A stretch of 40,176 bases of DNA from an uncultured Chloracidobacterium sp. Lineage in GTDB: Bacteria; Acidobacteriota; Blastocatellia; Chloracidobacteriales; Chloracidobacteriaceae. The notes beneath the pieces were generated by a model that ran no database searches, had not been told where the DNA came from, and worked only from the letters and a program-made list of their open reading frames with translations. Position 1 is the first letter of the stretch, and every line of letters starts with the position of its first letter. Positions 17,838 through 29,867 of the stretch are shown here, piece by piece. The stretch spans positions 1-40,176 of the forward strand of contig CALCKX010000074.1 in NCBI GenBank assembly GCA_937966115.1. Reading direction: 5' to 3'. The position numbers were made by a program, and so were the translations under genes.

Positions 17838-17869
17838 CGAGCAAACGAGTAGCCTTGGAGTCGCCAGAC

Positions 17870-18868
17870 ATGGCAAGCCGAAAGCGACGTTATGCAGGAA
17901 GGGCGAGCGGCGCGCTGTTGTTGAGCGGCGCGCTGTTCGCGGCGGTCGGCGCGCAGTCGCCGCCGGGCATCCCCCCGCAAGCGATAACGGTCGGCCCCGC
18001 GCGGATGGCTTTGGAAGAAACGCCGGAAGAGCGCCAAGCCAACCTCGAAGCCGCCCGGCTGGTGCTGGAGCAGGGGCTTATGGAGCGCAACGCCGACCGG
18101 CGGGCCGAAGTCGCCATGGCGCTGAGCCTGACGCGCGTCGAGAACAACCCGTTCCCGCTGCTTGAAATCGCGATTGCCGACAAGGACATCTACGTGCAGG
18201 TCGCGGCTTGCGCCTCGCTCGCGGGGCTGCGCGATTCGCGCGCCCTGCTGCTGCTGAAAAAAGCGCTTGACAGCGAGACGCCGGAAGTCGCCTTCGCCGC
18301 CGCCAAGGCGCTTTACTTGCACGGCGACCCGGAAGGCAAACAAGCCCTGATAGACATCGCGACCGGCGAGCGGCCGGCTAAATCCGGGTACTTTTCGGCT
18401 CAGCGGCGCGCTATGTTTCGCTCGATGAAAACGCCCGGCGGCTTTTTTCGGCTGGCCTTTCGCTACGGGATTGGGTTCGCGCCCGTGCCGGGCCTTGGCA
18501 TGGGGATTTCCTCGCTGGCTGGACTGCTCGCGGACGCCAGCCTTTCGGGGCGAGCGCAGGCAATTGCCGCGCTGCCGCCCGTCACCAGCGAAGACACCGT
18601 CGCCATGCTGCGCGAGGCGCTGACGGACGAAGACTGGGCGGTGCGGGCGGCGGCGGTTCACGCGCTGGCGATGAGCGACCAGACAGCGGCGCGGCGCGAC
18701 CTTGCGCCGCTTTTTCAAGATAAGAAAGAAGCCGTCCGGTACCGGGCCGCGGCGGCGTACCTGCGCCTGGACACAGAGCCAGCGGCGCCGGCGGAGCCAG
18801 CCGCCAAGCGCCCCGCCAAGCCGGCGACAAAGCCCCGGCCAGCCAAGCGCGCCCGCGCGCGCGACTGA
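17870..18868 (+). CDS. Exported HEAT-repeat protein with Lys/Pro/Ala tail
   Basis: The 332-residue protein starts with a basic N-terminus and a signal peptide (GALLLSGALFAAVGAQS). It contains HEAT-like helical repeats at about 100-170 (VQVAACASLAGLRDSRALLLLKKAL, VAFAAAKALYLHGD) and again near 245-305 (LREALTDEDWAVRAAAVHALAM, AVRYRAAAAYLRLD). A hydrophobic glycine-rich patch lies near 190-220. The last 35 residues are rich in Pro, Ala, Lys and Arg. HEAT arrays form scaffolds for protein contact; the partner is unknown. GGAG lies nine bases before the ATG at 17870, and a TTG at 17855 is less likely. A GC-rich hairpin follows the stop. Confidence 0.75.
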   Translation: MASRKRRYAGRASGALLLSGALFAAVGAQSPPGIPPQAITVGPARMALEETPEERQANLEAARLVLEQGLMERNADRRAEVAMALSLTRVENNPFPLLEIAIADKDIYVQVAACASLAGLRDSRALLLLKKALDSETPEVAFAAAKALYLHGDPEGKQALIDIATGERPAKSGYFSAQRRAMFRSMKTPGGFFRLAFRYGIGFAPVPGLGMGISSLAGLLADASLSGRAQAIAALPPVTSEDTVAMLREALTDEDWAVRAAAVHALAMSDQTAARRDLAPLFQDKKEAVRYRAAAAYLRLDTEPAAPAEPAAKRPAKPATKPRPAKRARARD

Positions 18869-18874
18869 CGCCCA

Positions 18875-18898
18875 GGCGGCGCCCGCTGGAGCGCCGCC
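18875..18898 (+). terminator. GC-rich hairpin after the HEAT-repeat gene
   Basis: GGCGGCGC at 18875-18882 and GCGCCGCC at 18891-18898 form a perfect eight-pair stem with an eight-base loop, six bases after the stop. No T-tract follows, so this may slow or protect transcript ends rather than be a full intrinsic terminator. Confidence 0.4.
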
Positions 18899-18956
18899 CG
18901 CCGAGGAGCCGTTTCGCCTGCCCTGAAAAAGCCCCTCCGCCGCGCCTGGCAAGCGC

Positions 18957-18986
18957 CTGGCACAGTCAACGCTAGCGGAGTACAAT
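18957..18986 (+). promoter_or_regulatory. Possible promoter for the large ATPase gene
   Basis: TACAAT at 18981-18986 matches five of six -10 positions, and CTGGCA at 18957-18962 (four of six) lies 18 bases upstream. The leader to the ATG at 19099 would be about 105 bases. This is one of the better promoter-like matches in the window. Confidence 0.4.
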
Positions 18987-19098
18987 GGCGTGCGCGACCT
19001 GCTCCTGCTCGCCTCCCGATTTGCTCCGATTCGCGGCGACTTCTTCATCAAGCCTGACGCGCGGGCAATAGACGCTAGACTCGTCGCAAACAAAACCC

Positions 19099-22000
19099 AT
19101 GGCTCAGAAAATACGCGATTGCCTAAACGTTGCCGAGTTCGTCCCGGTAGACTTCGCCGCCCCGGGCTGGGAGCGCGACCTGCTTCAGCGGGCGCTCCTC
19201 ACTTACGAGTTCGGCGACATCCTGCAGCGGCTCAGCGAGCGGTTGGTTGAGCCGACGCCAGCCGGCCACCGCGCTTCGCTGCTGGTTGGGCCGCCAGGCA
19301 GCGGGAAGTCGTTTTTGCTGCGGCTAATCCATGCGCTGGCGCAGTCTGCGGGAAAGCCGCTCGGCCCGGCTTCGCAGCGGCTACAGGATATCCATGCCCA
19401 GCTTGGGGCGCGGCGCTGGCATGTGGTCAGTCTTTACAGCGGGCAAGTTGGGCAGCCGGCCGTCTCGTTGCCAGCGCTCGACTACTTGGGACGCTTTGTC
19501 AGCTACGCGATCACAGCCGACGGCCTGGCCTCGGGAGGGGATCAGCCGGCGCTGGGTGATATTCTCGCCGCCTCTCAGTCCCTGCCTAAGGGCGAGGGAG
19601 GGGTCATCCTGATTGACGGGCTGGACGATCTCCTCCACGAGCGCTCGCCGCGCACGGCGAAGCCAGTGGTGAAAACGCTCGAGCTGCTCAGTCAGGCGTC
19701 GCGCCAGTCGCCGTTTTGCGTTTATGTCTCAGCGACGGATGATTTGCTCGATCCGGTCAAAGGTCGCCGGCTGTCAGCCGAGCAGGTCGCCACGCTGCTT
19801 GGCGGCTACAGCGTCGAATACCTTGGCGAAAACGCCATCCCGGCTCTCATCGGGGCGCATCTGCTGACCAAAAACGCCCGCCAGCGGCACTCGATCGCGC
19901 AGGTGCGCAAGCAGCTCCAGTCGAAGCTTCCAGAGCTGCGACTGGATGAGCAACGACTCATCAACCTCTATCCGCTGCATCCGATGGCGTGGGATATTGG
20001 GGCGCGACTGCGGCGTTACCTCAGCGGCTTCTCTTTCCCAGCTTTCGCTCTGAAAGCCGTCGAGCGGATTCGGAATCGCCCATCGGAAAGTCTTTTTACG
20101 GTGGACGAGATGTTCGACGCGTTGGAGCCGTTGTTGCGCGCGGCGCCGGCTTTGACGTATGCCTTTGAAAACTACGACCAGGCGACCGAGACGGTGCTTC
20201 CGCGCATCAGTCAGGGTCAGCGCCTGCACACGCGCATGCTGCTCAAGGCGATGCTGATGCACTCGCTGGCTGAGGTGCCCGCGACGGTGCGCAACCTGAC
20301 CAACAGCATCCTGTTTTATGATCTTTACGGTCAAAAGCCGACCTACAAGCTGTCGGCGGCGCTGCTTCAGCAAATCAAGGCGCTGTCCAAGAATGTCATC
20401 TTTACTGGGGACAACGCGGACGAGCGGGAATATCGGTTCCCCCTGCAGCCGGGCGAGGCGCTCGACAGCCTTGTGGATGCGCAGGCGAGCGCGCTCAGCG
20501 ACAGCGATCCTCGCCTCAACCTCGCCCTGCTGGCGGCCGGCAGTCTGCTTTTCGACGACTTTCCGCTTGGATTCGCCGTGGATGGCGATAAGCTCTGGAC
20601 TATCCGCTGCGCCGACTTCTGGCATATCATCCAGCAGGACGCGCTGGGCGTCGTCTGGGAGCCGGCCCAAGCGCAGCGCGGCAGCGCCCATCAGATACGG
20701 GTGCACTTTCCGCGCCGCGCCGGGCAAGCCGACTTCGACCTGGCAGCGTTGCAGTCCGGCGAGCTGGGAACCCATTGGCTGCCGGGCGCGCTTGACTTGG
20801 AAGATATCTGGACGCTCAAGCGGCTAGTCTGTCTCTCAGACCCGACGCTGCTCGGCGGCGGCGCGCCAGATGACGCGATTGCCCGGCGCATCATCGAGGA
20901 AGCGCGGCAGGCGGGGCTGGCGCTCTTCCGCCGCAAATACCTTTCCGAAGGGCGCTTTGTCTTTCGGAGCGGCACGGTCAGCGACGTTCCGCTACCGACC
21001 CTGCCCGCGCCTTGGCAGATGTGGGAGTGGCTCCTGCCGCTCACGTCGCCGGTTGCGCCGGAAGGGGCGTCTGAAGCCCTGTCGCTCGACGCAGCCCTGT
21101 GGATTGGCCATCTCGCCGCGCCTGCCCGCCAGCGCGCCGAGATGTTCATTCCCGAGGACGCTGAGCGGGCGCTCGGGGAGCTGAGCGCCTACTGCTACGC
21201 CTGGCGGCAACGCGACCTCTCGAAGGCGGTCGAGACGCTGTCACAAGCGCCGGCGCAGGAAACTGAAATCTGGGAGGCGCTGCGCGTCGTCCGGCAGTTT
21301 GAGCGGGTCGCCGCCCATGCGCGCCACGCTGTCATGCGCAAATCCATCACGGAAGAGCTAGAAGAGATCATCCTGCTTTTCGACAGCGATCTGGACGCCT
21401 TCTGGCGCGACCGCGCCACGCTGGAATCGGTCTATAGCTACAGCCAGGCGCAAGCGAGCTGCGAAGCCAAGCTGCGCTATCTCAACGAGAGCTTCCCCAC
21501 GAGCAATCCGACCGCCGAGCGGATTCGCTCCACCTTCAAGCTCCGGGGCGCGCCGCCGTGGCGGTTGTTTTACGCCAACAATCGCAAGCAGGTGGATTTG
21601 GCGTTCGGGGCCTTCCAGCCGGTCTATGCCGAGTTTTACAGCCTGCTTCACGCCGGCGCGACGCAGTCCAACGTCATCGAGCCGCTATGCACGCGACTGG
21701 TTTCCAGTCCCGAATGGCAAAATATGGAGCTGATCACGCAGCTCAGCATCAGCCGCCAGGACTTCCTCGTGGACGCCATCAACGAAATCTCGAGTCTCTA
21801 TCAGATGGTGTGTACCGAGCCGGTTGACGAGATTCTGCTCGTCCAGCCCAGGTGCCGCTGCGGCTTCGCCCCGGAAGAGGCGGGCCGGTTGCGCGCCGCG
21901 GAAGAGCGCGCCATGAGCCTGATTCGGCGCGGGCTCGACATTCACCGAGACATTCTGCGCGGCATGCGCAATGAAATTCGGGAGCGTCTCAAGCGGCGAC

Positions 22001-22116
22001 GGCAGCAGGTTTCGCCAGAAACCATCCACAAAATCGCGGCCCTGGTGGGGAATGACGAGATGCCGCTGCTGGATGACGAAACGATCCGCGTCCTCAATGA
22101 AGCGCTCGCCGAGTGA
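19099..22116 (+). CDS. Large P-loop ATPase of unknown function (possibly DUF6079/PglY-like)
   Basis: The 1005-residue cytoplasmic protein has a Walker A motif GPPGSGKS at 64-71 and a Walker B-like VILIDGLDDL at 169-178. An arginine-rich sensor-type stretch and winged-helix-like segments follow, giving an AAA/STAND-type N-terminal half. The C-terminal half is helical and ends with a PRCRCGF knuckle near residue 918 and a basic coiled-coil (RNEIRERLKRRRQQ). The layout resembles the DUF6079 proteins that include PglY of phage-defence (BREX type 2) loci, but I cannot confirm family membership by eye. No other BREX gene is near. Three genes follow in the same direction with short gaps: a small acidic protein, P-II and Amt. 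Defence, signalling or a nitrogen-linked role are all possible. Confidence 0.65.
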   Translation: MAQKIRDCLNVAEFVPVDFAAPGWERDLLQRALLTYEFGDILQRLSERLVEPTPAGHRASLLVGPPGSGKSFLLRLIHALAQSAGKPLGPASQRLQDIHAQLGARRWHVVSLYSGQVGQPAVSLPALDYLGRFVSYAITADGLASGGDQPALGDILAASQSLPKGEGGVILIDGLDDLLHERSPRTAKPVVKTLELLSQASRQSPFCVYVSATDDLLDPVKGRRLSAEQVATLLGGYSVEYLGENAIPALIGAHLLTKNARQRHSIAQVRKQLQSKLPELRLDEQRLINLYPLHPMAWDIGARLRRYLSGFSFPAFALKAVERIRNRPSESLFTVDEMFDALEPLLRAAPALTYAFENYDQATETVLPRISQGQRLHTRMLLKAMLMHSLAEVPATVRNLTNSILFYDLYGQKPTYKLSAALLQQIKALSKNVIFTGDNADEREYRFPLQPGEALDSLVDAQASALSDSDPRLNLALLAAGSLLFDDFPLGFAVDGDKLWTIRCADFWHIIQQDALGVVWEPAQAQRGSAHQIRVHFPRRAGQADFDLAALQSGELGTHWLPGALDLEDIWTLKRLVCLSDPTLLGGGAPDDAIARRIIEEARQAGLALFRRKYLSEGRFVFRSGTVSDVPLPTLPAPWQMWEWLLPLTSPVAPEGASEALSLDAALWIGHLAAPARQRAEMFIPEDAERALGELSAYCYAWRQRDLSKAVETLSQAPAQETEIWEALRVVRQFERVAAHARHAVMRKSITEELEEIILLFDSDLDAFWRDRATLESVYSYSQAQASCEAKLRYLNESFPTSNPTAERIRSTFKLRGAPPWRLFYANNRKQVDLAFGAFQPVYAEFYSLLHAGATQSNVIEPLCTRLVSSPEWQNMELITQLSISRQDFLVDAINEISSLYQMVCTEPVDEILLVQPRCRCGFAPEEAGRLRAAEERAMSLIRRGLDIHRDILRGMRNEIRERLKRRRQQVSPETIHKIAALVGNDEMPLLDDETIRVLNEALAE

Positions 22117-22161
22117 GCGCCCTTCGCCAGCGCGCCGCGCATCTTCGACGGAATCGCCGTC

Positions 22162-22470
22162 ATGCTCAAGACCGAACGCATTTACCTTGGCAAGCTTGGC
22201 TTGATACTCAACTCGCGCTACATTACCCAGACCGACGATGACCAGGTGGAGTATCGCTACATTGCCTCTTGCGGCGAGAGCTATTTGTTTGAAGTCATCG
22301 GCGATGACGTGTATGTCGTGGCCGAAAACGGCGACTTCGACGAGTTTGAGGCGTATGCCCGATACCTAGCCGAGGAAGCTTACCCAGCGCAGCGCGCCGG
22401 TCAGCCAGCCGGGGACAGCGCTGCCGCGGACGGCGACGCGCCGTCCGCTCCCCAGCGAGCCGGACCCTGA
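22162..22470 (+). CDS. Small acidic protein next to the large ATPase
   Basis: I do not recognise this 102-residue protein. The first 75 residues look like a compact beta-rich domain (RIYLGKLGLILNSRYITQ, YRYIASCGESYLFEVIGDD) followed by an acidic helix (FDEFEAYARYLAEEAY). The rest is a low-complexity Ala/Pro/Gly tail. Isoelectric point is clearly acidic. It starts 45 bases after the ATPase stop and ends 43 bases before the P-II gene, so all are probably one transcript. It could be a partner of the ATPase, whose C-terminus is basic. Confidence 0.6.
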   Translation: MLKTERIYLGKLGLILNSRYITQTDDDQVEYRYIASCGESYLFEVIGDDVYVVAENGDFDEFEAYARYLAEEAYPAQRAGQPAGDSAAADGDAPSAPQRAGP

Positions 22471-22513
22471 GCCGGCCCCGGAATCAGTCCCGAGCGAAAA
22501 GGCGGCGCGCGCC

Positions 22514-22936
22514 ATGAAACTCATCACAGCCATTATTCGTCCCGAGCGCCTGGCGGACGTCAAATCCGCCCTTTTCCGGGTTGGCGTGACCGGACTTTCA
22601 GTGAGCGGCATTCGGGGTCATGGAGGCGAGCCGGAGATCATCGAGCACGTTCGCGGGCAGCGCATCGTGGTGGAGTTTGCCGAAAAAGTCGAGTTGCGCA
22701 TCGCCGTATCCGAGGCGTTTGTCGAGCCGACGGTCGCCGCCATCCTGACGGCGGCCCGAACCGGCGCCGTCGGGGATGGGAAAATCTTTATCCAACCGCT
22801 GGAGCGCGTCATCCGCATCCGCACCGGCGAAGAAAACGAAGCCGCCCTGACGCCGCTCACAGCCGACCAGGTGCAGGCGCGGGCGTTGCAGGAAGCGCCC
22901 GTCCAAGGGACGGACAAGCTTGGAAAGACGCCATGA
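22514..22936 (+). CDS. P-II family nitrogen regulator with altered T-loop
   Basis: P-II proteins sense ATP/ADP and 2-oxoglutarate and gate the Amt channel. This 140-residue copy aligns with E. coli GlnB without gaps through residue 103. Lys58, Gly87-Asp88-Gly89-Lys90, Arg101 and Arg103 for nucleotide and 2-oxoglutarate contact are kept, as is the VGDGKIFI signature. In the T-loop, Tyr51 (the uridylylation site) is Ile, Tyr46 is Val, Gln39 is Glu and Lys40 is Pro; Arg47-Gly48 are kept. Uridylylation at Tyr51 is therefore impossible, and the Gln39 ligand for magnesium-2-oxoglutarate is changed. A 28-residue tail follows the normal end. The amt start overlaps its stop by four bases (ATGA), so the two are translationally coupled. 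Confidence 0.9.
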   Translation: MKLITAIIRPERLADVKSALFRVGVTGLSVSGIRGHGGEPEIIEHVRGQRIVVEFAEKVELRIAVSEAFVEPTVAAILTAARTGAVGDGKIFIQPLERVIRIRTGEENEAALTPLTADQVQARALQEAPVQGTDKLGKTP

Positions 22937-24198
22937 ACGAGACAGGCATTTCAGCCGGCGATACGGCTTGGCTGCTCGCCTCAGCCGCCCTGGTCTTTTT
23001 GATGACGCCGGGACTCGCTTTCTTTTACGGCGGACTGGTCAGCCGGCGACATGTCCTCAACACCTTGATGATGACGGTTGGGGCGCTCTGCGTCGCCGCG
23101 CTGGTCTGGGCCGCAATCGGCTACTCGCTGGCCTTCGCGCCTGGCGGCGCCTGGATTGGCGGGCTGGCGTGGGCTGGCTTTCAGGGCGTCGGCGGGGAGC
23201 CGCAGGCGGATTACGCCGCCACGGTGCCACACCTGGCCTATGCGGCGTTCCAAGGGATGTTCGCGGTCATTACGCCGGCGCTCATCGCCGGGGCGGTCGT
23301 GGGGCGCATGGACTTCCGGGCATACCTGCTCTTTGTGGCGCTGTGGTGCGTCGGCGTTTACGCCCCGGTGGCCCACTGGGTCTGGGGGCTTGGCGGATGG
23401 ATTCGGGCGTCCGGGGCGCTGGACTTCGCCGGCGGCGCGGTCGTGCATATCACGGCCGGGGCAGCGGCCCTGGTTGCGGCCGCCGTGGTCGGCGCGCGCG
23501 CCGATGTCAGGCGCTCGCCGCTTCGCCCGCACAATATCCCGTTCGTCCTGCTGGGAGCGGGGCTGCTGTGGTTTGGATGGTTCGGATTCAATGCCGGCTC
23601 GGCGCTGACGGCGGGCAGGCTGGCGAGCCTGGCCTTGGTCACGACGCACTTGAGCGCGGCGGCGGCCGTCCTGGTCTGGCTGGCGATTGAGACCGCTCGC
23701 GCGGGCAAGGCCACCGCGGTTGGGGGCGCCACGGCCGCCGTGGTCGGCTTGGTCGGCATCACGCCCGCGGCCGGCTTCGTGTCGCCGCTCGCGGCCATGG
23801 CGATTGGCGGCATCACGGCGGCGGTCTGCTACGCGGCTATCCAGTGGCGGACGCGCCTCAACCTCGATGACACGCTCGACGTTTTCGCCTGTCACGGCGT
23901 AGGCGGCATGTGCGGCGCGCTGTTGACGGGCGTCTTCGCGCAGCAGTCGCTCAACGAGGCCGGGGCGAACGGCTTATTGGCCGGCAACCCGAAGCTGGTG
24001 CTGACGCAGATGATCGCGGTCGTCGCCACGCTGGCTTACACGCTGGCGGCGACGTTTGTCCTGCTGAAGCTCATTGGTCTCGTCCTGCCGCTGCGCCTGC
24101 CGCTCGCCCAAGAGCTGGAAGGCATTGACCGCCACGCCCATGGCGAGGCCGCCTACCATGAAGCCACCGGGGACGACCTCTTTGACCCGGCGGTATAG
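22933..24198 (+). CDS. amt: Ammonium transporter Amt
   Basis: This 421-residue inner-membrane channel conducts ammonium. It has 11 membrane helices and the family signature DFAGGAVVHITAGAAALVAA, with the first pore His in VHITAG and the second in ACHGVGGMCGALLTG. FFYGGLVSRR near residue 31 and FGWFGFNAGSAL in the middle are typical. The cytoplasmic C-terminus (GIDRHAHGEAAYHE) is the usual P-II and gating contact. It overlaps the P-II gene by four bases, the standard glnK-amt arrangement. No leader-type signal peptide is needed in this family, and no odd residues were seen in the pore. Confidence 0.95.
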   Translation: MNETGISAGDTAWLLASAALVFLMTPGLAFFYGGLVSRRHVLNTLMMTVGALCVAALVWAAIGYSLAFAPGGAWIGGLAWAGFQGVGGEPQADYAATVPHLAYAAFQGMFAVITPALIAGAVVGRMDFRAYLLFVALWCVGVYAPVAHWVWGLGGWIRASGALDFAGGAVVHITAGAAALVAAAVVGARADVRRSPLRPHNIPFVLLGAGLLWFGWFGFNAGSALTAGRLASLALVTTHLSAAAAVLVWLAIETARAGKATAVGGATAAVVGLVGITPAAGFVSPLAAMAIGGITAAVCYAAIQWRTRLNLDDTLDVFACHGVGGMCGALLTGVFAQQSLNEAGANGLLAGNPKLVLTQMIAVVATLAYTLAATFVLLKLIGLVLPLRLPLAQELEGIDRHAHGEAAYHEATGDDLFDPAV

Positions 24199-24283
24199 CG
24201 CCAGGCAAGGGCTTGACCAACGCCCGCGCTTCAGCCGGCGAAGGCGCCTCGCGAAGCCCGGGCGCGAACGACGCTTGCGAATT

Positions 24284-25360
24284 GTGAACTACATCGGCAG
24301 TAAGCGCTCGCGGCTTTCTTTTCTGGAACGGCATATTCTGGAATTTTCATCGCCAGAAACGAGCTGGTCGTTTTTCGATGTCTTCGCGGGCACCGGAGCC
24401 GTGGGGCGACACTTCAAAAGGCTTGGCTTTCGCGTCATTTCAAACGACATTCAGCGCTATAGCTATTGCCTCAATCGGGCATACATCGGCATCAGCCAGG
24501 CGCCAGCTTTTGGCAACTTGGCAAGAACGCTGTCAACTTCCCTTGACCCTGCGCCCGATGAAGCCGCGGACGTCGTTCTTGGCTATTTGAACCAGCTCAG
24601 CGGGGTTGGCGGCTTCGTCTATCGCCATTACTGTTTGGGCGGCACGCTTGGCGGCCCCTTTCCGCGACAGTATTTCACGGACGAGAACGGAAAGCTTTGC
24701 GACGCCATCCGTCTCCAGATCGAGCAATGGCGTCAGGATGACCTCATTTCTGACGATGAATATTTCTACCTGCTGGCGAGCTTGATTGAGGCGGTTGACA
24801 AAGTGGCCAACACGGCTTCCGTTTACGGCGCTTTTCTCAAGCGAGTCAAGCCCAGCGCCCGCAAGTCGCTCAAGCTCGAGAAGCTCGAAATCATACCGAG
24901 CCAAAAGACGCACCAGGTTTATCAGCAGGACGGCAACCCGCTGGCGCGCAGCGTCGCCTGCGACATCCTCTACCTTGACCCGCCCTATAATCAACGCCAG
25001 TACGCCACCAACTACCATGTCCTGGAAACCATCGCCCGCTACGACAGCCCGGCGCTTCGCGGCGTCACTGGATTGCGCGACTACGCGCATCAGAAATCAG
25101 ACTTTTGCTATAAGTCAAAGGCGCTCAAATCGCTCGAGGACCTCATCCAAAACGCGAAAGCGCGCTATGTCTTCCTGAGCTACAATAGCGAGGGACTGAT
25201 GTCTGAACAGGACGTCATCTCCCTGATGAAGCGCTACGGCAAGGCGGAGCTGCGGCAAGAGGCACATCGGCGCTTCCGCGCCGATCTCAACCGCGAGAAC
25301 CGACGATACAGGGCGGATCAGGTCATTGAGTATCTGTTCTGTCTTGAAAAACTCGCCTAA
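24284..25360 (+). CDS. D12-class N6-adenine DNA methyltransferase (orphan)
   Basis: The 358-residue product starts with NYIGSKRSRLSFLE, typical of Dam/DpnM-type enzymes. It has the SAM-binding FDVFAGTGAVGRHF at 31-44 and the catalytic DPPY at 232-235, in the order of alpha-class N6-adenine methyltransferases. It transfers a methyl group to adenine in a short DNA motif. The motif recognised is unknown. The GTG at 24284 places the conserved NYIGSK directly at the start; a TTG at 24275 would add three residues. The frame runs upstream into amt but is not coding there. No restriction endonuclease gene is adjacent, so it may be a solitary methylase. Codons are less GC-rich than in the neighbours, which suggests acquisition by transfer. 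Confidence 0.85.
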   Translation: MNYIGSKRSRLSFLERHILEFSSPETSWSFFDVFAGTGAVGRHFKRLGFRVISNDIQRYSYCLNRAYIGISQAPAFGNLARTLSTSLDPAPDEAADVVLGYLNQLSGVGGFVYRHYCLGGTLGGPFPRQYFTDENGKLCDAIRLQIEQWRQDDLISDDEYFYLLASLIEAVDKVANTASVYGAFLKRVKPSARKSLKLEKLEIIPSQKTHQVYQQDGNPLARSVACDILYLDPPYNQRQYATNYHVLETIARYDSPALRGVTGLRDYAHQKSDFCYKSKALKSLEDLIQNAKARYVFLSYNSEGLMSEQDVISLMKRYGKAELRQEAHRRFRADLNRENRRYRADQVIEYLFCLEKLA

Positions 25361-25394
25361 AGGCTTTTTCGACGAGACCTGACTTCGCGCCGCC

Positions 25395-25880
25395 ATGGAA
25401 AGCATCGCCAGACTCATTCCACAGGTCATGAGGTTTGCCGCCGGGCAGAACGACATGCTCCTGGCGGTCTGTCGCGCCGCCTGGGCGCTGGCGGCGGGCG
25501 AGGTCACGCGTCAGGTCAGCGAGGTTGTCGGGCTCGCCGACCGGACGCTGACGGTGGCGGCGCGCGACGCCCAGTGGAAGCGCCAGCTTGAAGCCCTTGC
25601 GCCCCAGATCATTTTTCAGCTCAACAGCATTTTGCGGCAGCCGCTGGTGCTTCGCATCCACATCGTCGTGGATGCGAAGCTTTTCAAGCTGGCGCCGCGG
25701 CCGGAAAAGCCGCTGCCGACCGCCCCGCTGCCGGAGGAGCTCGTGGCGAGCGCAGGCGCCATCGCCGACGCGGCGCTGCGCGAGCAATTTCTGCGCCTTG
25801 CCGCCGCTTGTCTGGCCCGCGACCGCGCTGGCGACGCTCGCGCCCGGCGTCCCGACTCCGCCCAATCAAAAGACCGATGA
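25395..25880 (+). CDS. DciA-like (DUF721) protein
   Basis: The 161-residue protein resembles DUF721/DciA, which loads the replicative helicase DnaB in bacteria lacking DnaC/DnaI. The KH-like domain pattern is visible: AVCRAAWALAAGEVTRQVSEVVGL, then LTVAARDAQWKRQLEALAPQIIFQLNSIL and LRIHIVVD. The C-terminal part after about residue 100 is helical and low-complexity, ending in RDAR-type charge. It starts 34 bases after the methyltransferase stop. The ATGA at its stop also offers a start for the next gene. Without a search the DUF721 call is likely but not certain. Confidence 0.7.
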   Translation: MESIARLIPQVMRFAAGQNDMLLAVCRAAWALAAGEVTRQVSEVVGLADRTLTVAARDAQWKRQLEALAPQIIFQLNSILRQPLVLRIHIVVDAKLFKLAPRPEKPLPTAPLPEELVASAGAIADAALREQFLRLAAACLARDRAGDARARRPDSAQSKDR

Positions 25881-25931
25881 CCAGCCCGCCAGGGTCCAGC
25901 CACGGCGCTGGCGGGTGCGCTCGGCGGCTGG

Positions 25932-25959
25932 ACGGGATAGAGTCTGAACGGGATAGAGT
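25932..25959 (+). repeat. Tandem repeat of ACGGGATAGAGT before the S8 peptidase
   Basis: ACGGGATAGAGT occurs at 25932-25943 and 25948-25959, a 16-base period, in the 161 bases between the DciA-like stop and the preferred peptidase start. Codons here (ATA, AGA, GTA, TTA) are rare in the window, which suggests non-coding sequence. The pair could be an operator or a slippage product. Confidence 0.6.
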
Positions 25960-26041
25960 AAAGACACGCTTCTTACGCTTGGGATGGTTGCCGTCCGGCT
26001 TCGGCGAGCTTTTGTCGGCGGCGGCAGGGTTTTATTCGCGG

Positions 26042-27409
26042 ATGTTCGTTTGCGCTGTTTGTCACTATGCGCTTGATGACGACCTGCGTGTCGCGGCTTC
26101 AGCCATGTCGAGCCTTGCGCGCGACTTATTGCACCTGAACCTGCCCCACTGGGACGAGCGCAACGCCGTCTGCCGCGACTGCCTGGATCGCTTTACCCAC
26201 GCCCGGGCGCGGCTGGGCTTGTACCTGCCGCCAGCCAGCGGCCCGGAGCCGCCCCAGTTCAAGATTTTACCGACGCCTCTGCGGCTTGGCGCCAGTCCGC
26301 GCTACACCGGGCGCGGCGTCACGATCGCCTTCCTGGATTCCGGCTTTTACCCGCATCCGGATATTACCCAGCCGGTCAATCGCATTCTGCACTACCACAA
26401 CGTCTTGACGCGCCGTTCCGATCCGTCCGAGCTGGCCGCGCCGGATGACTCCAGTTGGCATGGCCTGATGACTTCGGTCGTGGCGGCCGGCAACGGCTTT
26501 TTGTCGAAGGGGCTATATCGCGGCATCGCTTCGAGCGCCAGGCTGGCGCTGGTCAAGGTCGGCACGACGCGCCGGATTTACCACGACGACATTCGACGCG
26601 GTCTGGATTGGGTGTATCGCAACCGCCAGCGGCTTGGCATTCGCATCGTCAATCTTTCGTGCGGCGGCGACTACGAGGCGTCCTATCTGACGGATGCGCT
26701 CTCGCAGTCGGCCGAGCGGCTGGTCAAAGCCGGCGTCGTGGTGGTGGCGGCGAGCGGCAATGCCGGCCACCAGGCCGAACACCCGGTGCTGCCGCCCGCC
26801 AGCGCCCCTTCGGTCATTGCCGTCGGCGGCTTTGATGACAAAAACACGCTCGACCCCAACGAGCATGGCGTGTATCAGTCGAGCTACGGCGTGACGCCGG
26901 ATGGCCTTCAGAAACCGGAGGTCATCGCCCCCAGCATCTGGATCGCCGCGCCGATTCTGCCGGGCACGCCCACCGCGCAGCAGGCTGCCCTCTACGAGCA
27001 GCTCACCCGCGCCCAGGACGGCGACCTCAAGGCGCTGCTCGCGCAGCATCCGGGCGTCGACCGCGAGCTAGACGCCGCAGCGCGCCTCGAGCCATATCAA
27101 CTGCGCCTGCTCGTGGAAGGCAAAATGCGAAATGAGAAGGTCATCTCCGGCCACTACAAGCATGTGGACGGCACCTCGTTCGCCGCGCCGATTGTGTCCT
27201 CCATCGTCGCGCAGATGCTGGAAGTCAACCCGCGCCTCACGCCGCAACAGGTCAAGCGCATCCTGATCCGCACGGCGCGGCGACTGCCCAACATTGAGCC
27301 GGACCGCCAGGGATGGGGCGTCGTCAATGCCCGCCAGGCAGTCGCCGCCGCGCTCAATGGCGGCGACGCCCTGCCGTCAGGGAATCACCGTGACCTCGAC
27401 CGGTCGTGA
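26042..27409 (+). CDS. Cytoplasmic S8 (subtilisin-like) peptidase with N-terminal zinc ribbon
   Basis: From the ATG at 26042 the protein has 455 residues. Cys4, Cys7, Cys44 and Cys47 form a CxxC...CxxC zinc-ribbon candidate. The S8 triad is Asp99 (IAFLDSGF), His140 (SSWHGLMTSVVAAGNG) and Ser379 (GTSFAAPIVSSIV), with Asn240 (AASGNAG) as oxyanion residue. A charged insert of about 65 residues lies between IAPS and GTSF. No signal peptide or propeptide is visible, so it probably acts inside the cell. The frame is open to an ATG at 25877 that overlaps the DciA-like stop as ATGA and would add 55 residues. Rare codons there argue against it, but the longer start remains possible. Its 3' end overlaps the converging FN3 gene by 33 bases. 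Confidence 0.85.
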   Translation: MFVCAVCHYALDDDLRVAASAMSSLARDLLHLNLPHWDERNAVCRDCLDRFTHARARLGLYLPPASGPEPPQFKILPTPLRLGASPRYTGRGVTIAFLDSGFYPHPDITQPVNRILHYHNVLTRRSDPSELAAPDDSSWHGLMTSVVAAGNGFLSKGLYRGIASSARLALVKVGTTRRIYHDDIRRGLDWVYRNRQRLGIRIVNLSCGGDYEASYLTDALSQSAERLVKAGVVVVAASGNAGHQAEHPVLPPASAPSVIAVGGFDDKNTLDPNEHGVYQSSYGVTPDGLQKPEVIAPSIWIAAPILPGTPTAQQAALYEQLTRAQDGDLKALLAQHPGVDRELDAAARLEPYQLRLLVEGKMRNEKVISGHYKHVDGTSFAAPIVSSIVAQMLEVNPRLTPQQVKRILIRTARRLPNIEPDRQGWGVVNARQAVAAALNGGDALPSGNHRDLDRS

Positions 27410-28481
27410 CGGCGCGCTCTCGTTGCCGAAAACATCCACCGCCGTGACGACATAGCGATACGTCTGGCCGCCGACGCCCGTTCGATCCTGGAACGTCGTC
27501 CGCTGAATGGGCGTTGGCGTGAGCTTGACCGGCGCGGCGTCCGTCCCCGCCTCGCCGCGGTAAATGATATAGCCGCTGACATCGGGTTCGGGGTTGGCGG
27601 GAAAGAACAGGCTGACCAGTCCGGCCGCCGAAGCGCCTGTGACATTGGCGGGGGCCGACGGCGGGAAAGCGTCCACGGGACGCACCCGCAGCGGCGCCGA
27701 GGCGCGGCTCTCGATCAGCTCGCCGCGCGCCAGGCTCACCGCCCGAATGACGTACTCGTATTCCTCGCCAAACGCAAAGTCGGTATCGGCAAAGGCGGGC
27801 GAGGTCAGCGGCGCGTTGTTCCGGCGGGACTCCAGCCCGCCGTCCGTCCGTCGCCGATACACATTGAACTGCGCGTCAACCGCCGGCGACCCATCCAGGC
27901 TCCGCGCTGGCGGCTGCCAGGCCAGCCGAATGGCGTCCTGGGTTACTTCCGCCCGCGCCTCGCCAGGGGCGTCGGCGACGCCGCCAAAGGGATAGGCCAG
28001 GGCGTAGCTCGACAGCGGCGACGGCCGCCCGCGCTCATCGATCAGCCGGACGGCGTATCGAATCCGCTTGTCCCGCCAACTCGCGTCCAGCGGGTCAAAG
28101 AGGTCAGCATAGGTCGGCGCGGCGGCGGCCAGCTCCAGCCCGCCAACCGAGCCAACCAGCCGCGCTTCGCGCAGGAAGACTTCCTCCGGCAGCGCGAGCG
28201 GCGCGTCGCGCGGCTCAACTCGGCGGAGGACATCGGCGCGGACGGCGCGGACGTCGCGGGCGAACCGCAAGATAATCTGGTCGCCATACTGCGTGGCGAC
28301 CAGCTCGTCCGTCGCCGCCAAGGCGAAGCGCGGCGGCGGAACAGGCGGGCCCACCTTGGCGCAGCCAACGCTGACGAGGGTCAGCCCGCCCCAGGCCAGG
28401 GCCAACGCCTTCCGCGCCCAACCCGGCGACCTCCGGCAGGCGGGCCGCGGCGCGCCGCCTGGAGCGCCGCCGCCTGCGGCG

Positions 28482-28510
<29 letters not shown>
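27377..28510 (-). CDS. Lipoprotein with fibronectin type III domains
   Basis: The 377-residue product has a basic n-region ([16 protein letters not shown]), a hydrophobic core and a lipobox VSVGC, so it should be a lipid-anchored envelope protein. From about residue 140 on there are two FN3-type domains with the typical VxLxWxPP and YxYxVxAxD patterns ([40 protein letters not shown]). Function is unknown; such proteins often bind surface partners or glycans. The ATG at 28510 lies inside the hslU end by 29 bases and supplies the basic n-region. A TTG at 28405 is the alternative and leaves the signal peptide without positive charges. The gene may be co-transcribed with hslU. Confidence 0.75.

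Positions 28511-29867
<1,357 letters not shown>

What the first reader, a model, noticed from the sequence alone, without database searches (positions are those of the whole stretch)
19099..22470. Large P-loop ATPase plus small acidic partner upstream of glnB-amt
A 1005-residue ATPase with a C-terminal CxCG knuckle and basic coiled-coil is followed by an acidic 102-residue protein, then P-II and Amt, with gaps of 45 and 43 bases and a four-base overlap. Its layout recalls DUF6079/PglY ATPases of phage defence, but no other BREX gene is present. This may be an undescribed two-gene system, or a module tied to nitrogen status by P-II.
Basis: inference. Interest (0 to 1): 0.7.

Follow-up and report, generated by a model that had tools for sequence, protein, structure and literature searches.

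The report
Stand-alone chromosomal relative of BrxC
The large gene encodes a distant cousin of the scaffold ATPase of the BREX anti-phage system that one family of bacteria carries on the chromosome, in nearly all its genomes without the rest of BREX; its small neighbour and the nitrogen genes beside it look like lineage-specific neighbours rather than a system.

Summary
The window is Chloracidobacterium-like. The 1005-residue protein is a divergent DUF6079/BrxC-type ATPase: DUF6079 37.8 bits (cut-off 23); its predicted fold matches BrxC first, ORC/Cdc6 next. It is not BREX: PglZ was found in 0 of 7 genomes of the genus and 1 of 10 of the family, the ATPase in 10 of 10. The small gene is adjacent in 7 of 7 genomes of the genus, apart in 2 other genera (G007, G009), undetermined in a third (G008, contig ends); no glnB or amt lies near either gene in the stretches fetched there. 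A P-II link is unsupported and a two-gene system unproven. New: the protein belongs to a clade, apart from BREX BrxC (SH-aLRT 99), with a longer paralogue in five of nine families of the class. There the catalytic Walker B glutamate is replaced (11 of 11 short, 59 of 60 long forms); 7 of 7 BREX or other DUF6079 controls keep it. The short form has lost BrxC's second winged helix and keeps a C-x13-C-x-C knuckle. Best reading: an ATP-binding, slowly hydrolysing, DNA-binding scaffold with a chromosomal role. Its cellular role is inferred.

The parts
19099..22116 (+). BrxC-like (DUF6079 superfamily) ATPase, short form, 1005 aa
   Evidence: PF19557 37.8 bits; Foldseek best hit BrxC 9zdx, E 1.6e-7; orthologue in 10 of 10 genomes of the family among 98 searched
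19288..19311 (+). Walker A, GPPGSGKS, residues 64-71
   Evidence: Lys70 in 11 of 11 short forms and 58 of 60 long forms, the other 2 having no residue there
19603..19629 (+). Walker B, VILIDGLDD, residues 169-177; Asp173 kept, the catalytic Glu position 174 is Gly
20995..21099 (+). Site, about residues 633-667, where the second winged helix of BrxC and of the long paralogue is missing
   Evidence: three blocks of median 52, 25 and 70 residues absent
21811..21867 (+). C-x13-C-x-C-G-F knuckle, Cys905, Cys919, Cys921, in the C-terminal helical arm
   Evidence: 11 of 11 short forms, 49 of 60 long forms
22162..22470 (+). 102-aa acidic protein, family-restricted orphan; residues 1-70 form a confident beta-meander and the start of a helix
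   Evidence: strong match in 10 of 98 relatives and 6 of 297 genomes of the phylum, all in one family; block pLDDT 92-96 over residues 1-70; no fold match at E 0.001
22514..22936 (+). glnB (P-II); neighbour, not held to be part of the system
   Evidence: PF00543 85.8 bits; follows the small gene in 6 of 7 genomes of the genus, the 7th contig ending
22933..24198 (+). amt; neighbour, not held to be part of the system
   Evidence: PF00909 375 bits

Best explanation
The ATPase is a chromosomal, stand-alone relative of BrxC, the ORC/Cdc6-type AAA+ scaffold of BREX. It most likely binds ATP at a normal Walker A site, self-associates through the AAA+ module and the C-terminal helical arm with its Cys knuckle (zinc assumed), and binds duplex DNA through the winged helix and the alpha+beta domain. 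Because the Walker B glutamate is replaced, hydrolysis should be slow or absent, so the ATP-bound, DNA-bound assembly should be long-lived. This resembles the E269Q form of Acinetobacter BrxC, which still binds DNA and dimerises more firmly. With no PglZ in the genus, and kept through the family, it probably serves the host chromosome as a DNA-bound scaffold or switch, not BREX restriction. The 102-residue protein is a separate conserved protein that lies in the same run of genes as glnB-amt in this genus. SHOWN: homology, fold similarity, conservation, absence of a PglZ match, the substitutions, where the linkage holds. INFERRED: oligomerisation, DNA binding, slow hydrolysis, zinc, chromosomal role, co-transcription.
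For: DUF6079 over its cut-off, for the short form in 10 of 10 genomes of the family; PADLOC BrxC 26 bits. Predicted fold (mean pLDDT 80, pTM 0.46): the best six PDB hits are BrxC chains, followed by ORC/Cdc6. Profile match to four BREX BrxC/PglY proteins over 226 columns, probability 90.8; to the long paralogue over 972 columns, which aligns with BrxC over 475 columns. Orthologue in 10 of 10 genomes of the family; PglZ in 0 of 7 of the genus and 1 of 10 of the family; no match in 72,556 plasmid or 50,697 phage records at E 0.001. Short forms on one branch (100/99); 11 short plus 59 long forms on one side of a branch against 4 BREX proteins, L110 and L100 (SH-aLRT 99). Walker B Glu replaced in 11 of 11 short and 59 of 60 long forms, kept in 4 of 4 BREX proteins and in L110, L117 and L100. 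BrxC E269Q keeps ATP-dependent DNA binding and favours dimers (PMC13326643, passages).
Against: A possible substitute acid exists at +3 in 11 of 11 short forms (D in 9, E in 2), so hydrolysis may persist. The TM-score to BrxC is modest (0.28 by query, 0.46 by target). In the careful tree the deepest fork between the clade and BREX is weak (75/35); several rows are long branches. PADLOC also gives SspC, another defence ATPase, at 21.4 bits, and the genes just downstream, a D12 methyltransferase and a subtilase, have PADLOC matches too. A fixed gene can still be a defence gene; no phenotype is known. DNA-binding residues were not tested, and the second winged helix, one of BrxC's proposed DNA contacts, is lost. 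The class as a whole does not keep the gene: no match in 4 of 9 families sampled.
Confidence: 0.6

Rival explanations
1. A stand-alone defence gene: the BrxC-like ATPase senses or traps phage DNA by itself, with or without the small protein.
For: The relatives described in the passages and sections I read act in defence (PMC12839542). Besides BrxC, PADLOC matches SspC weakly, and two downstream genes of the four proteins scanned match its methyltransferase and subtilase models.
Against: Present in 10 of 10 genomes of the family, whereas PglZ, as a marker of BREX, is over the cut-off in 6 of 98; dN/dS about 0.1. The rest of the window was not scanned with PADLOC, so a defence island is not excluded by a search.
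Confidence: 0.18
2. The ATPase and the 102-residue protein form a two-gene system.
For: Adjacent in 7 of 7 genomes of the genus, possibly also in G008, where both lie at contig ends; close orthologues of both occur in the same 10 genomes of 98.
Against: Apart in G007 and G009; G017, with two homologues of the short clade, lacks the small gene. Co-occurrence in one family is expected of any two family-specific genes.
Confidence: 0.13
3. A nitrogen-status module: P-II controls the ATPase.
For: glnB and amt follow with short gaps in 6 of 7 genomes of the genus; no terminator-like site in the two gaps of the window.
Against: No glnB or amt match in the stretches fetched around the ATPase or the small gene in G007, G008 and G009, nor around the two G017 copies. 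glnB-amt pairs are usual without such an ATPase (recalled).
Confidence: 0.05
4. A decaying remnant of BREX with no remaining function.
For: Loss of the second winged helix and of the Walker B Glu.
Against: Strong purifying selection over the whole gene and Walker A Lys, Asp173 and Cys knuckle in 11 of 11 short forms.
Confidence: 0.04

Closest known systems
BrxC (BREX type I), Acinetobacter, PDB 9zdx/9zll
   Same: Fold of the AAA+ and first winged-helix region; Walker A; order of domains as far as the model shows
   Different: 12.8 bits against a cut-off of 400 for NF033441; Walker B Glu replaced; second winged helix lost; no PglZ match in the genus
PglY (BREX type 2) and DUF6079 of the BREX-related capture systems (PMC12839542, section 36)
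   Same: DUF6079 superfamily
   Different: No PglZ match in the genus; the PglY model NF047891 was not hit at E 1, whereas G007's own PglY scores 972.6 bits (its cut-off is 1700)
Long BrxC-like paralogue in Blastocatellia (mostly 1150-1290 aa; G000:C76, L090 and others; no name found)
   Same: Homologous over 972 columns; Walker B Glu replaced in 59 of 60; Cys knuckle in 49 of 60; same clade
   Different: Keeps the second winged helix; flanked by an M48 peptidase in 42 of 62 loci and a DUF2520 protein in 39 of 62
DUF499 ATPases (BREX-related systems)
   Same: Similar N-terminal ATPase and winged-helix plan, as described in PMC12839542 (passages)
   Different: No PF04465 match at E 1 and no helicase among the nine proteins scanned

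Membership tests
DUF6079/BrxC superfamily | PF19557 over its curated cut-off | tested here: met
   37.8 bits, cut-off 23; short form over the cut-off in 10 of 10 genomes of the family
DUF6079/BrxC superfamily | ORC/Cdc6-type AAA+ followed by a winged helix | tested here: met
   Foldseek: BrxC 9zdx/9zll first, ORC/Cdc6 next; TM-scores modest
DUF6079/BrxC superfamily | alpha+beta domain after the first winged helix | tested here: inconclusive
   Strand and helix order in residues 508-629 fits; not compared by structure, since the solved BrxC chains hit end at about 551
DUF6079/BrxC superfamily | second winged helix | tested here: not met
   30 residues where BrxC L113 has 64 and the three long forms shown have 101-104
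DUF6079/BrxC superfamily | C-terminal coiled-coil arm | tested here: met
   Mostly helical from 722 to 1004; oligomer state not testable
DUF6079/BrxC superfamily | Walker B catalytic Glu (BrxC E269) | tested here: not met
   0 of 11 short forms; 1 of 60 long forms; 4 of 4 BREX controls have it
BREX BrxC | NCBIfam equivalog NF033441 over its cut-off | tested here: not met
   12.8 bits against 400; control L113 BrxC 749 bits
BREX | PglZ in the genome | tested here: not met
   0 of 7 genomes of the genus (the window's own is 85% complete, the other six 95-100%); over the cut-off in 6 of 98
BREX | PglX-type methyltransferase beside it | tested here: not met
   The nearest methyltransferase, 24263-25360, is D12 class and is absent from 3 of 5 loci of the genus spanning amt to dciA; whole genomes were not searched for PglX
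DUF499 BREX-related systems | DUF499 profile and helicase partner | tested here: not met
   No PF04465 match and no helicase among the nine proteins scanned from 17855 to 28750
STAND NTPases | NACHT or STAND profile over its cut-off | tested here: not met
   NACHT 18.9 bits (cut-off 26.7), nSTAND5 13.1 (cut-off 34)
P-II regulated protein | Physical binding of P-II | not testable with these tools
   -

The most novel reading that the evidence does not exclude
Several families of a bacterial class keep a housekeeping branch of the BREX scaffold ATPase: an ORC-like, DNA-bound, naturally hydrolysis-impaired AAA+ protein that works on the host chromosome, present as a long and a short form in this family. 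BrxC of BREX would then be either the source or a recruited offshoot of a cellular chromosome protein.
Probability: 0.35. Interest if true: 0.72.

Novelty: new variant of a known kind. Interest (0 to 1): 0.5.

Why it matters
If right, BREX's central ATPase has relatives that are kept by descent and work without PglZ. That would give a simple model for what BrxC itself does (DNA-bound scaffold), show a natural version of the E-to-Q trap used in the laboratory, and make the question of where BrxC came from testable. It also warns that DUF6079 or BrxC hits alone should not be counted as defence systems.

Tried and rejected
Two-gene system: not shown, because the genes are apart in G007 and G009; G008 cannot be told. 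P-II module: the link was seen in the genus only. Mobile origin: tblastn against plasmids and phages gave no match; viral contigs were not searched. Rfam: nothing at the gathering score in the window. PHROGs: nothing convincing for the ATPase (best E 0.17), the small protein (best E 0.22) or its relative in G008 (none). Fold of the small protein: no match at E 0.001; the best, profilin at E 0.36, is not meaningful. PDB by sequence: 150 matches at E 1, 60 shown, nearly all P-loop proteins, with a coatomer and a CBS protein among them. Promoter/terminator scan: one promoter-like site at 18957-18986 upstream of the ATPase (0.6 expected) and 8 terminator-like sites (5.1 expected), none in the two gaps. 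GTDB scan by pattern found 6 loci, all of the short clade; its patterns are strict, so absence elsewhere is not proved. Paper searches for an already described stand-alone BrxC: DUF6079 (2 papers, both listed); BrxC with PglY and ATPase (6, all listed); two of Chloracidobacterium, phage defense, BREX (165 papers, 10 listed); two of BrxC, orphan, ORC (137 papers, 12 listed); and terms within PMC12839542. None of what I saw describes it; unlisted papers were not seen and most subscription papers are not held.

Rows dropped before counts: L100 (a DUF6079 protein outside the clade that keeps the Glu) and L102 (N-terminus missing) were left out of the 60 long forms (62 loci; several loci can come from one genome, e.g. 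G010, G011 and G013). L049, a fragment, was also left out of the tree (59 long forms), and L117, a fragment, of both trees. G008 has only the first 735 residues of the ATPase and so is not among the 11 short forms; its Walker B stretch also lacks the Glu.

The upstream neighbours are not fixed through the genus (HEAT protein and gatA found in 5 of 7 loci, not in G002 or G003). The gene is absent from 4 of 9 families of the class.
Full report
OBSERVATION. The spacing of 45 and 43 bases and the four-base overlap follow. Walker A (GPPGSGKS, residue 64) and CRCGF (residue 919) are present. Both genes are under purifying selection: dN/dS against the window is 0.085-0.143 for the ATPase in 6 of 6 genomes of the genus, and 0.037-0.073 for the first 75 codons of the small gene in the 4 of 6 where dS could be computed. 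These are genes, not chance ORFs.

ORGANISM. The whole-genome search places the window in a genus of which six other genomes are held. A named record with an 85% identical ATPase is Chloracidobacterium sp. CP2_5A. The genus is therefore taken as Chloracidobacterium, class Blastocatellia.

WHAT THE ATPASE IS. Pfam gives DUF6079 (PF19557), 37.8 bits against a cut-off of 23, best stretch residues 47-305; the short form is over the cut-off in 10 of 10 genomes of the family. PADLOC gives BrxC at 26 bits, E 4e-7, and SspC at 21.4 bits, E 1e-5. The NCBIfam BrxC equivalog NF033441 gives 12.8 bits against a cut-off of 400. The AlphaFold2 model from 12 aligned sequences has mean pLDDT 80 and pTM 0.46. 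Foldseek against the PDB ranks six BrxC chains of the Acinetobacter BREX system first (9zdx, 9zll; best E 1.6e-7, TM-score 0.28 by query and 0.46 by target), then ORC/Cdc6 proteins. The global TM-scores are modest; the ranking is the point. Profile comparison with four BrxC/PglY proteins from BREX-type loci of the same class (alignment A3) aligns 226 columns at probability 90.8, E 1.2e-6.

DISTRIBUTION AND DESCENT. Among 98 relatives, 62 have some match to the ATPase at E 0.001 or better; by family, matches lie in five of nine families (f1, f2, f4, f6, and one genome of f7) and none in f3, f5, f8 and f9. Close orthologues (45-85% identity; G008 58% over 735 residues at a contig end) are in 10 of 10 genomes of the family, the window's included. 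Two homologues of 27-32% identity are in G017 of another family. All ten genomes of the family also hold a longer paralogue, in G000 and G008 as fragments. In a spread of 297 genomes of the phylum, 65 match at E 0.001, many of them only weak P-loop matches. A careful tree of 36 proteins puts the 11 short forms on one branch (100/99), 17 long forms on another (99/99), and four BREX proteins apart (one group in 98% of bootstrap trees); its deepest fork is weak (75/35) and several rows are long branches. A quick tree of 76 proteins puts 11 short and 59 long forms on one side of a branch (SH-aLRT 99) and the four BREX proteins, L110 and L100 on the other, with the same warnings about long branches. 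Inside the genus the short and the long forms both pair G001 with G004 and G003 with G006, as expected from descent. There is no match in plasmid or phage records.

NOT BREX. PglZ (PF08665) has no match in 7 of 7 genomes of the genus, the window's own being 85% complete, and is found in 1 of 10 of the family; it is over the cut-off in 6 of 98. The exception, G007, is a useful control. It has a PglY-like protein (972.6 bits to NF047891, whose cut-off is 1700) directly upstream of a PglZ-domain protein on contig 35, and separately, on contig 29, the stand-alone ATPase. A type I BrxC in G061 scores 749 bits to NF033441.

THE SUBSTITUTED WALKER B. Aligning short, long and BREX proteins shows Lys70 and Asp173 kept, but the glutamate after the Walker B aspartate gone: in 11 of 11 short forms (G 5, S 3, A 1, D 1, N 1) and in 59 of 60 long forms (T 39, D 9, G 8, N 2, S 1; E in 1, from G005). 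It is present in 4 of 4 BREX proteins and in three other DUF6079 proteins (L110, L117 and L100). In Acinetobacter BrxC this residue is E269; its change to Q lowers hydrolysis, keeps ATP-dependent DNA binding and favours dimers (PMC13326643, passages read). The short forms all carry an acid three residues after the aspartate (D in 9, E in 2), which could take over the role, so slow hydrolysis is a prediction only.

ARCHITECTURE. BrxC is described as ORC/Cdc6 AAA+, winged helix, alpha+beta domain, winged helix, coiled coil with a small terminal subdomain (PMC12839542, section 16 read). The order of elements in the model fits, except that the short form lacks the second winged helix: relative to the long forms three blocks with medians of 52, 25 and 70 residues are missing between residues 633 and 667. 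In the columns of the BrxC winged helix (L113, residues 809-872) the window has 30 residues and the three long forms shown have 101-104. Long forms align with BrxC over 475 columns, through this region, and with short forms over 972 columns. A C-x13-C-x-C knuckle is in 11 of 11 short and 49 of 60 long forms, and is missing from the 6 long copies of the genus that are not cut off. In BrxC the end of the coiled coil is compared by its authors with the hook of other coiled-coil ATPases; whether the knuckle lies at that place and binds zinc is assumed.

THE SMALL PROTEIN. At E 0.1 it matches in 13 of 98 relatives: 10 strong matches (E 6e-17 or better), all in the family, and three weak ones (E 0.015 to 0.056) in other families, not counted, as is one further weak match in G003. 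In the phylum it matches in 6 of 297 genomes, all in the family. It lies next to the ATPase in 7 of 7 genomes of the genus, 13 kb away in G007, and on another contig in G009. In G008 the ATPase runs off its contig and the small gene begins 39 bases into another, so adjacency there can be neither shown nor excluded. glnB and amt follow in 6 of 7 genomes of the genus; the HEAT-repeat gene and gatA upstream were found in 5 of 7. No glnB or amt match was found in the stretches fetched around either gene in G007, G008 and G009. Its model is confident over residues 1-70, a beta-meander followed by one long helix, and matches no solved fold at E 0.001. No profile of Pfam, NCBIfam or PADLOC matches it at E 1.

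NEIGHBOURHOOD OF THE LONG FORM. Among 62 loci, an M48 peptidase lies on the opposite strand in 42 and a DUF2520 protein on the same strand in 39 (families confirmed on L090). This repeated place argues for a fixed chromosomal gene where it occurs; the six long copies of the genus shown whole have neither.

MECHANISM. The best-supported reading is an ATP-binding, DNA-binding, self-associating scaffold with impaired hydrolysis and a role on the host chromosome; the binding steps rest on BrxC and are inferred. That it is a defence gene acting alone is not excluded; two genes downstream also match PADLOC models (a D12 methyltransferase present in 2 of 5 loci of the genus, and a subtilase). The linkage to the small protein is real in the genus and may reach G008; that to glnB-amt was seen in the genus only.

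NOVELTY. The paper searches, of whose larger listings only 10 of 165 and 12 of 137 papers were shown, and a search for such terms inside PMC12839542, showed no description of this clade. The library holds open-access papers only. I rate it a new variant of a known kind.

Noticed in passing
24263-25360: D12-class N6-adenine methyltransferase between amt and dciA; present in the window and G002, absent from the three other loci of the genus that span amt to dciA. No restriction partner among the nine proteins scanned.
   Followed up: partly
22514-22936: The P-II protein seems to lack the tyrosine of the T-loop that is uridylylated in enteric GlnB (motif recalled, read by eye), so control may be by ligands only.
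   Followed up: no
25952-27409: Subtilisin-like protease with a CxxC near the N-terminus, distantly like mycosins, found at 86-92% identity in 4 other loci of the genus.
   Followed up: no
L090, L091, L093, L094 and others: Repeated block in the class: long BrxC-like ATPase, DUF2520/Rossmann protein downstream, M48 (BepA-like) peptidase divergent. The long form deserves a study of its own.
   Followed up: partly
L045 and L046 (G017): Two diverged copies of the short form in one genome, on different contigs, without the small protein.
   Followed up: partly
L107 (G007:C35): PglY-like and PglZ-domain pair of BREX type 2 in a relative of the same family that also has the stand-alone ATPase.
   Followed up: yes
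G000:C76:25045-26463: The long paralogue of the window's own genome is cut off by the end of its contig.
   Followed up: no
L061: A record titled Actinomycetota carries the family's ATPase (58% identity) on a scaffold named WN_Acidobacteria; the title looks wrong.
   Followed up: no
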